A program made the position numbers and the translations under genes. DNA of 64,000 nt. Origin: Candidatus Nomurabacteria bacterium (GTDB lineage Bacteria > Patescibacteriota > Saccharimonadia > Saccharimonadales > Saccharimonadaceae). Below are positions 36,925-37,323 of this stretch, in pieces. The notes under the pieces are model-generated. The model searched no databases and was not told where the DNA came from. It saw nothing but the letters and a program-made list of their open reading frames with translations. Within the stretch, counting starts at the first letter, position 1. Each line of letters starts with the position of its first letter. The stretch spans positions 62,001 to 126,000 of the forward strand of contig JAISHF010000001.1 in NCBI GenBank assembly GCA_031262695.1, read 5' to 3'.

Positions 36925-37025
36925 ACTGATATAAGTATAGCACATTTTGGTAAAATTTATAAGTGCTTTTGGTAATTTATTGCCGATTTTTCGCGTTTTT
37001 TGCTTGATTTTTGATAATGGTTTTG

Positions 37026-37195
37026 GTATAATGATTTCATAGAGGCGCACCAGCGCAAGGGGTGCACCTCATTGTGAGGACACTTAACTGCTAGTAATAG
37101 CGGTTAAGTTTTTACCGTTTTCGCCCTGAAAAGAGCGAAATGGTAATGCGTAAGAACAAAATTCTTAACGATACACTCACAATTCTAGCCTAGCA
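37026..37195 (+). ncRNA. Structured RNA with promoter, family not recognised
   Basis: TATAAT at 37027-37032 drives about 150 nt with strong folding. A 5' hairpin pairs 37042-37051 with 37061-37070. An 8-bp closing stem (ATTGTGAG 37071-37078 with CTCACAAT 37176-37183) encloses three hairpins. The first is an 11-bp stem with a GTAA (GNRA) tetraloop (37083-37108); the second (37112-37146) has a bulged stem and 10-nt loop; the third pairs 37151-37156 with 37162-37167. It lacks the marks of tmRNA, RNase P, 6S and SRP RNA. No poly-T end is seen right after it. The gap 36925-37323 otherwise holds only the ABC promoter, the hairpin at 37240-37270 and the wHTH promoter. Confidence 0.65.
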
Positions 37196-37239
37196 CAACG
37201 TAAAATAAATCTAAGCATAAGTGTCAACGGTTATGTTTA

Positions 37240-37270
37240 TTCTGACCCCAGGAGGGGGTAGGGGTCAGAA
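37240..37270. terminator. Ten-bp hairpin after the structured RNA
   Basis: TTCTGACCCC (37240-37249) pairs with GGGGTCAGAA (37261-37270). The downstream sequence is A-rich rather than T-rich, so termination is uncertain. It may be the 3' end of the RNA at 37.04 kb or an operator for the next gene. Confidence 0.4.
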
Positions 37271-37323
37271 ACTTTATAAAAAAATCGTAAGAAATGGGGC
37301 GAAAAACATAGTATAATATATAT

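What the first reader, a model, noticed from the sequence alone, without database searches (positions are those of the whole stretch)
37026..37195. Multi-hairpin RNA of unknown family next to its own promoter
A TATAAT box is followed by a 5' hairpin and an 8-bp closing stem enclosing three hairpins, one an 11-bp stem with a GNRA (GTAA) tetraloop and a second with an internal bulge that could serve as a docking site. The parts fit together without overlap over about 145 nt and the region has no plausible ORF. It does not show the conserved cores of tmRNA, RNase P, 6S or SRP RNA.
Basis: partly seen in the sequence, partly recalled or inferred. Interest (0 to 1): 0.78.

Follow-up and report, generated by a model that had tools for sequence, protein, structure and literature searches.

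The report
Toxin-like peptide gene with antisense RNA
The predicted hairpin RNA is one strand of a repeated two-gene unit in a tiny termite-gut bacterium: a short membrane-type peptide on one strand and a small RNA covering its message on the other, which looks like a self-poison kept in check by RNA and switched on together with DNA-repair and DNA-uptake genes.

Summary
The fold is real (z = -6.3) and matches no Rfam family, but it is not a free-standing 145-nt RNA. Both strands are used.

The plus strand has a consensus promoter (TTGATT-17-TATAAT) and a two-hairpin RNA of about 75 nt.

There are 11 such units: 7 in this genome, 3 and 1 in two sister species, none found outside this Saccharibacteria genus. 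The peptides form two unrelated families (A, 21-22 aa; B, 30 aa) on one RNA chassis. Codon conservation is strong, and 16 of 21 RNA pairs show compensatory changes.

In the window copy an 84-bp deletion removed leader and Shine-Dalgarno, leaving a leaderless GTG start.

All seven peptide promoters in this genome carry a ~75-bp module shared with recA, comM, a cutinase, a MazF-like gene and two CdiA_C genes. No LexA-type protein was found.

Best reading: inducible type I toxin-antitoxin modules, apparently the first in Patescibacteria. Toxicity and expression are untested.

The parts
37004..37032 (+). Promoter of the antisense RNA: TTGATT-17-TATAAT with a TG before the -10
   Evidence: same geometry in all 11 units
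37042..37070 (+). Stem-loop 1 of the antisense RNA
   Evidence: Covaries in 11 units
37082..37109 (+). Stem-loop 2 of the antisense RNA, followed by TTTTA (37110-37114): terminator-like but weak in this copy
   Evidence: Covaries in 11 units; six T after the stem in family B; not called by the consensus scan here
37039..37114 (+). Inferred antisense (antitoxin) RNA of about 75 nt
   Evidence: Inferred from promoter, covariance model and U-run; no transcript data
37112..37180 (-). ORF of 22 codons, GTG start: (M)SVSLRILFLRITISLFSGRKR, toxin-like peptide of family A
   Evidence: Codon-level conservation in 8 copies
37187..37192 (-). -10 (TAGGCT) of the peptide mRNA, 6 nt before the GTG (leaderless geometry)
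   Evidence: same spacing at other genes of the set
37072..37078 (.). One arm of the closing stem; in the peptide mRNA it is the 3' spacer that pairs with the 5' end
   Evidence: coordinates
37176..37182 (.). Other arm of the closing stem; in the peptide mRNA its 5' end and start codon
   Evidence: coordinates
37213..37235 (-). Inverted repeat CATAACCGTTGACACTTATGCTT, shared with recA, comM and others
   Evidence: 14 hits at 13 places in this genome, none for the reversed pattern; 4 of 4 genomes of the genus
37240..37287 (-). Second part of the shared promoter module: GACCCC...GGGGTC inverted repeat and T-rich tract
   Evidence: 13 copies in this genome

Best explanation
A copy of a dispersed type I toxin-antitoxin-like module. 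The minus strand makes a short mRNA for a 22-aa hydrophobic, cationic peptide from a weak -10 promoter governed by a module shared with recA and comM, presumably inducible. The plus strand makes a ~75-nt two-hairpin RNA from a strong, constitutive-type promoter. This RNA is fully complementary to the 3' part of the peptide mRNA (and to its whole ORF if the weak terminator is read through), so in growing cells it should duplex with the mRNA and block or destroy it. The mRNA also folds its 5' end onto its own 3' spacer, which should keep the full-length message silent until processed. When the regulon is induced, mRNA outruns antisense RNA and the peptide acts, most likely at the membrane. Shown here: coding constraint, two-hairpin covariation, promoter sequences, repeated architecture, shared upstream module, absence from the family libraries searched. 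Inferred: transcription, RNA pairing in vivo, toxicity, the inducing signal.
For: Eleven units in one genus with the same anatomy. The peptide ORF is conserved by codon, with a Shine-Dalgarno in ten of eleven copies. Unrelated genes lie beside the copies, so the unit stands alone. Antisense promoters match 8-12 of 12 positions at 16-17 bp spacing. The two-hairpin RNA covaries: 16 of 21 pairs, 89.8% of cells paired against 32-50% when slid. The 5'-3' mRNA stem is stronger than for shuffled spacers: -90.6 against -54.8 +/- 6.2. The peptides are short, hydrophobic and basic at the C-terminus, a feature shared by several type I toxins such as LdrD, AapA1 and BsrG (PMC8309996). Inducible toxin with constitutive antisense RNA is the tisB/istR1 logic (PMC7708055); a full-length mRNA silenced by a 5'-3' stem is the aapA/IsoA logic (PMC6733600).
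Against: No expression or toxicity data. No match to any known type I toxin family. Two arginines inside the hydrophobic stretch of most family A peptides make a clean membrane helix less certain. The family A terminator has only 4-5 U. No clear terminator was seen for the peptide mRNA. G-U excess on the + strand is small (11 against 4). The window copy has lost leader and Shine-Dalgarno and may be decaying, though its ORF is intact. The three G002 copies lack the shared upstream module.
Confidence: 0.72

Rival explanations
1. The peptide is real and antisense-controlled but is not a self-toxin: it could be a signal, a competence or envelope factor, or a peptide aimed at the host bacterium or rivals of this epibiont.
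For: Expression would be tied to recA/comM-type genes; small cationic amphipathic peptides can have such roles; no toxicity data exist.
Against: No signal peptide is apparent; dispersed stand-alone copies each with an antisense RNA, and a predicted 5'-3' silenced mRNA, are the usual anatomy of type I toxins.
Confidence: 0.15
2. A stand-alone multi-hairpin regulatory RNA of ~145 nt on the + strand, with the ORF incidental.
For: Strong fold; covarying hairpins 1 and 2; + strand promoter.
Against: Codon-level conservation of the ORF, Shine-Dalgarno in ten of eleven copies, ORF strand promoter shared with recA and comM; hairpin 3 is coding sequence and a U-run follows hairpin 2.
Confidence: 0.06
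3. The window copy is a decaying remnant: the deletion silenced the peptide and only the antisense RNA still works, perhaps in trans on the other copies.
For: 84-bp loss removing leader and Shine-Dalgarno, GTG start.
Against: ORF intact; the -10 to GTG spacing of 6 nt is that of leaderless genes here; its own 5' end and 3' spacer still match each other.
Confidence: 0.4
4. A miniature mobile element that spreads hairpins and promoters, with no toxin role.
For: Dispersed intergenic copies of ~300 bp, about 80% identical.
Against: No target-site duplication noticed when reading the ends; ORF under codon selection; the upstream part is a promoter module also present without the unit; no match in phages, plasmids or viral contigs.
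Confidence: 0.04

Closest known systems
aapA/IsoA type I toxin-antitoxin systems (Helicobacter pylori)
   Same: Multicopy chromosomal modules; short peptide with basic C-terminus; antisense RNA of ~75-80 nt; full-length mRNA predicted to be closed by a 5'-3' interaction (PMC6733600)
   Different: No peptide family match; the short antisense RNA here would overlap the 3' part of the mRNA first, and the peptide promoter belongs to a recA/comM-type set
tisB/istR1 (E. coli)
   Same: Toxin promoter in a DNA-repair-type regulon, antitoxin RNA constitutive (PMC7708055)
   Different: IstR1 pairs near the tisB mRNA 5' end; here cis-antisense to the 3' part. No LexA-type protein found in this genome
ibs/Sib (E. 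coli)
   Same: Structured antisense RNA with a ~20-aa hydrophobic peptide ORF on the opposite strand, several dispersed copies (PMC8309996; copy number from my own knowledge)
   Different: Peptide unrelated and cationic; no Rfam hit
par/Fst RNAI-RNAII (Enterococcus plasmid pAD1)
   Same: Toxin mRNA and antitoxin RNA whose contact starts at terminator loops (PMC8309996)
   Different: No Fst-family match, chromosomal, no clear shared bidirectional terminator
msoT1/msoA1 (Microcystis)
   Same: Recent extension of type I systems to a new phylum from genome analysis (PMC12390103)
   Different: Different phylum; no sequence comparison made here

Membership tests
Type I toxin-antitoxin system | Small, usually hydrophobic, protein-coding toxin gene | tested here: met
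   21-22 aa and 30 aa ORFs under codon selection, hydrophobic core with basic C-terminus
Type I toxin-antitoxin system | RNA complementary to the toxin mRNA, with its own promoter | tested here: met
   Promoter sequence on the opposite strand in all 11 units and a covarying two-hairpin RNA overlapping the mRNA 3' part; transcription itself not shown
Type I toxin-antitoxin system | Peptide is toxic when over-produced | not testable with these tools
   Needs expression
Type I toxin-antitoxin system | The RNA prevents toxin synthesis | not testable with these tools
   Needs co-expression
aapA/IsoA family | mRNA closed by a 5'-3' interaction | tested here: met
   Predicted for all eleven mRNAs; summed energy 5.8 sd beyond shuffled spacers, though b5 is no better than shuffles and g3 weak; 5' ends are inferred
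aapA/IsoA family | Homologous peptide | tested here: inconclusive
   No Pfam, NCBIfam or PDB match; 22-30 aa gives little power and no direct comparison with AapA1 was run
tisB/istR1-like SOS toxin | LexA-controlled toxin promoter | tested here: not met
   No Peptidase_S24 (LexA-type) protein in the genome while 10 of 14 control genomes ring; genome is 97.5% complete, so a missing gene is not fully excluded
Rfam families | Score above a family's gathering cut-off | tested here: not met
   best sub-threshold E 0.15

The most novel reading that the evidence does not exclude
In an ultra-small, presumably episymbiotic bacterium with no LexA found, one regulator drives recA and comM together with a battery of self-poisons: seven RNA-guarded type I toxins of two unrelated peptide families on one interchangeable RNA chassis, a MazF-like gene and two CdiA_C genes. 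DNA damage or DNA uptake would thus trigger programmed arrest or death.
Probability: 0.35. Interest if true: 0.8.

Novelty: new variant of a known kind. Interest (0 to 1): 0.66.

Why it matters
Type I toxin-antitoxin systems have been reported only from Proteobacteria, Firmicutes and Tenericutes, with a recent candidate in Cyanobacteria (PMC12390103). This would extend them to the Patescibacteria/CPR, where I found no report in the papers searched. It adds two new peptide families on a shared RNA chassis. It also links them to a recA/comM promoter set, so the signal behind toxin release in a reduced genome without LexA becomes testable.

Tried and rejected
Rfam and tRNA/tmRNA: nothing at this place. 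Peptide HMM in 393 genomes of the order and 200 relatives, GTDB contigs, viral contigs, phages and plasmids: nothing outside the genus beyond weak noise. Covariance-model hits outside the genus: six were inspected and none shows the unit's anatomy; several look like ordinary terminators. A second interaction between the 5'UTR and stem-loop 1 was tested and left open: z -2.9 within the mRNA, -2.6 with the antisense RNA. Leader peptide/attenuator: rejected, as no common downstream gene exists. The inverted repeat outside the genus is at control level. One paper search call failed on a term and was repeated.

Full report
Observation. The stretch 37026-37195 folds far better than shuffled sequence (-59.6 against -35.8 +/- 3.8 kcal/mol, z -6.3). 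No Rfam family matches.

Copies. A DNA search of the window's own assembly and 60 relatives found four copies in this genome and three matches in two sister species. One sister genome appears in GTDB as a Candidatus Saccharibacteria MAG, Th196P3bin140. An HMM of the peptide found one more, giving eight family A units. Reading the loci that share the upstream module revealed three units of a second kind, family B.

The other strand codes. In seven of the eight family A copies the minus strand shows a Shine-Dalgarno and a 21-22-codon ORF, e.g. MSISLRILFLRITVSLFLGRKR. The window copy has the ORF with GTG and no Shine-Dalgarno. Variable columns fall 10/4/14 on codon positions 1/2/3. The mean BLOSUM62 of changed codons is 2.76 in frame, against -0.7 to 1.6 in other frames. 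Family B is 30 aa, e.g. MKILNAKFLCFKVVVTAHFWRKRRKNSNRK, with the same bias (11/5/16). Neither family has a Pfam or NCBIfam match, and the family A peptide tested has no PDB match.

The plus-strand RNA. All 11 units have a promoter with TTGnnn and TATAAT-like hexamers, 17 bp apart in ten and 16 in one. A covariance model of the ~80-nt RNA puts two hairpins in all. 89.8% of cells pair (32-50% when slid), 16 of 21 pairs change on both sides, and the covariation score is 0.59 against 0.30 in shuffles. The alignment was fitted to the model, which leans towards it. Because hairpins are symmetric between strands, covariation alone does not choose the strand; G-U outnumber A-C cells 11 to 4, slightly for the + strand. 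A U-run follows the second hairpin on the + strand, six T in family B.

The mRNA. With the mRNA start placed about 6 nt after the -10, the 5' end (GUGGG in most copies) pairs with the spacer between the complements of the two hairpins. The summed energy is -90.6 against -54.8 +/- 6.2 for shuffled spacers. In the window copy the 5' end is GUGAG and its spacer reads CUCAC, its best partner among all spacers. The mRNA start sites are inferred. A 5'-3' stem silences full-length aapA mRNA (PMC6733600).

The window copy. Its inverted repeat is 55 bp from the start codon against 139 bp in copy c98, an 84-bp loss that removed leader and Shine-Dalgarno. The GTG lies 6 nt after the -10. This is the leaderless geometry of most other genes with the same module and of 12 of 66 ORFs in the window (chance about 1). 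Its codon changes against c57 are 5 synonymous and 3 non-synonymous, all without a stop or frameshift. Whether it is active or decaying is open.

The shared promoter module. The 75 bp upstream of the peptide promoter recur 13 times in this genome. The inverted repeat gives 14 hits at 13 places, with none for the reversed pattern. It is found in 4 of 4 genomes of the genus and at control level elsewhere. Downstream genes are recA, comM and a cutinase in all four species. PemK/MazF-like and CdiA_C genes follow it in two species, as do the seven peptide units of G000 and the one of G003. No Peptidase_S24/LexA-type protein was found in this genome. Competence or DNA damage is the natural guess for the signal; whether the regulator activates or represses is not known.

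Reading. The anatomy fits a type I toxin-antitoxin module with an inducible toxin and a constitutive antisense RNA. Toxicity, expression and regulation are not shown. Published accounts place type I systems in Proteobacteria, Firmicutes and Tenericutes, with one recent cyanobacterial candidate (PMC8309996, PMC12390103). Searches of the held papers gave none for Saccharibacteria; most subscription journals and preprints are not in that library.

Noticed in passing
window 37213-37287 (minus) and L038, L042, L049-L052, L061, L063-L069: A ~75-bp promoter module with two inverted repeats, restricted to this genus, stands before recA, comM, a cutinase, MazF-like and CdiA_C genes: a recA/comM gene set without LexA whose regulator is unknown.
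   Followed up: partly
L040, L047, L048: Second peptide family (30 aa, KRRKxSNRK-type end) on the same antisense-RNA chassis and a similar leader as family A, found only in this genome.
   Followed up: partly
whole window: TAnnnT lies exactly 6 nt before the ATG in 12 of 66 ORFs (chance about 1): leaderless mRNAs seem common in this genome.
   Followed up: partly
L013 2103-2483 and G002 contig C6 24524-26756: In sister genome G002 a family A unit lies near an ORF resembling the CdiA_C proteins, and a copy of the inverted repeat lies ~2.2 kb away beside sequence resembling the MazF-like gene; judged by eye.
   Followed up: no
L025 and L028, around the G002 C1 unit: A different repeated motif (CATATTGGTTGTGGTAAAAT-like) flanks this unit, which lacks the recA/comM-type module; possibly another regulon.
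   Followed up: no
L061, L059: The shared module also precedes a secreted protein of ~370-390 aa without a Pfam match (first 250 residues tested) in G001 and G002.
   Followed up: no
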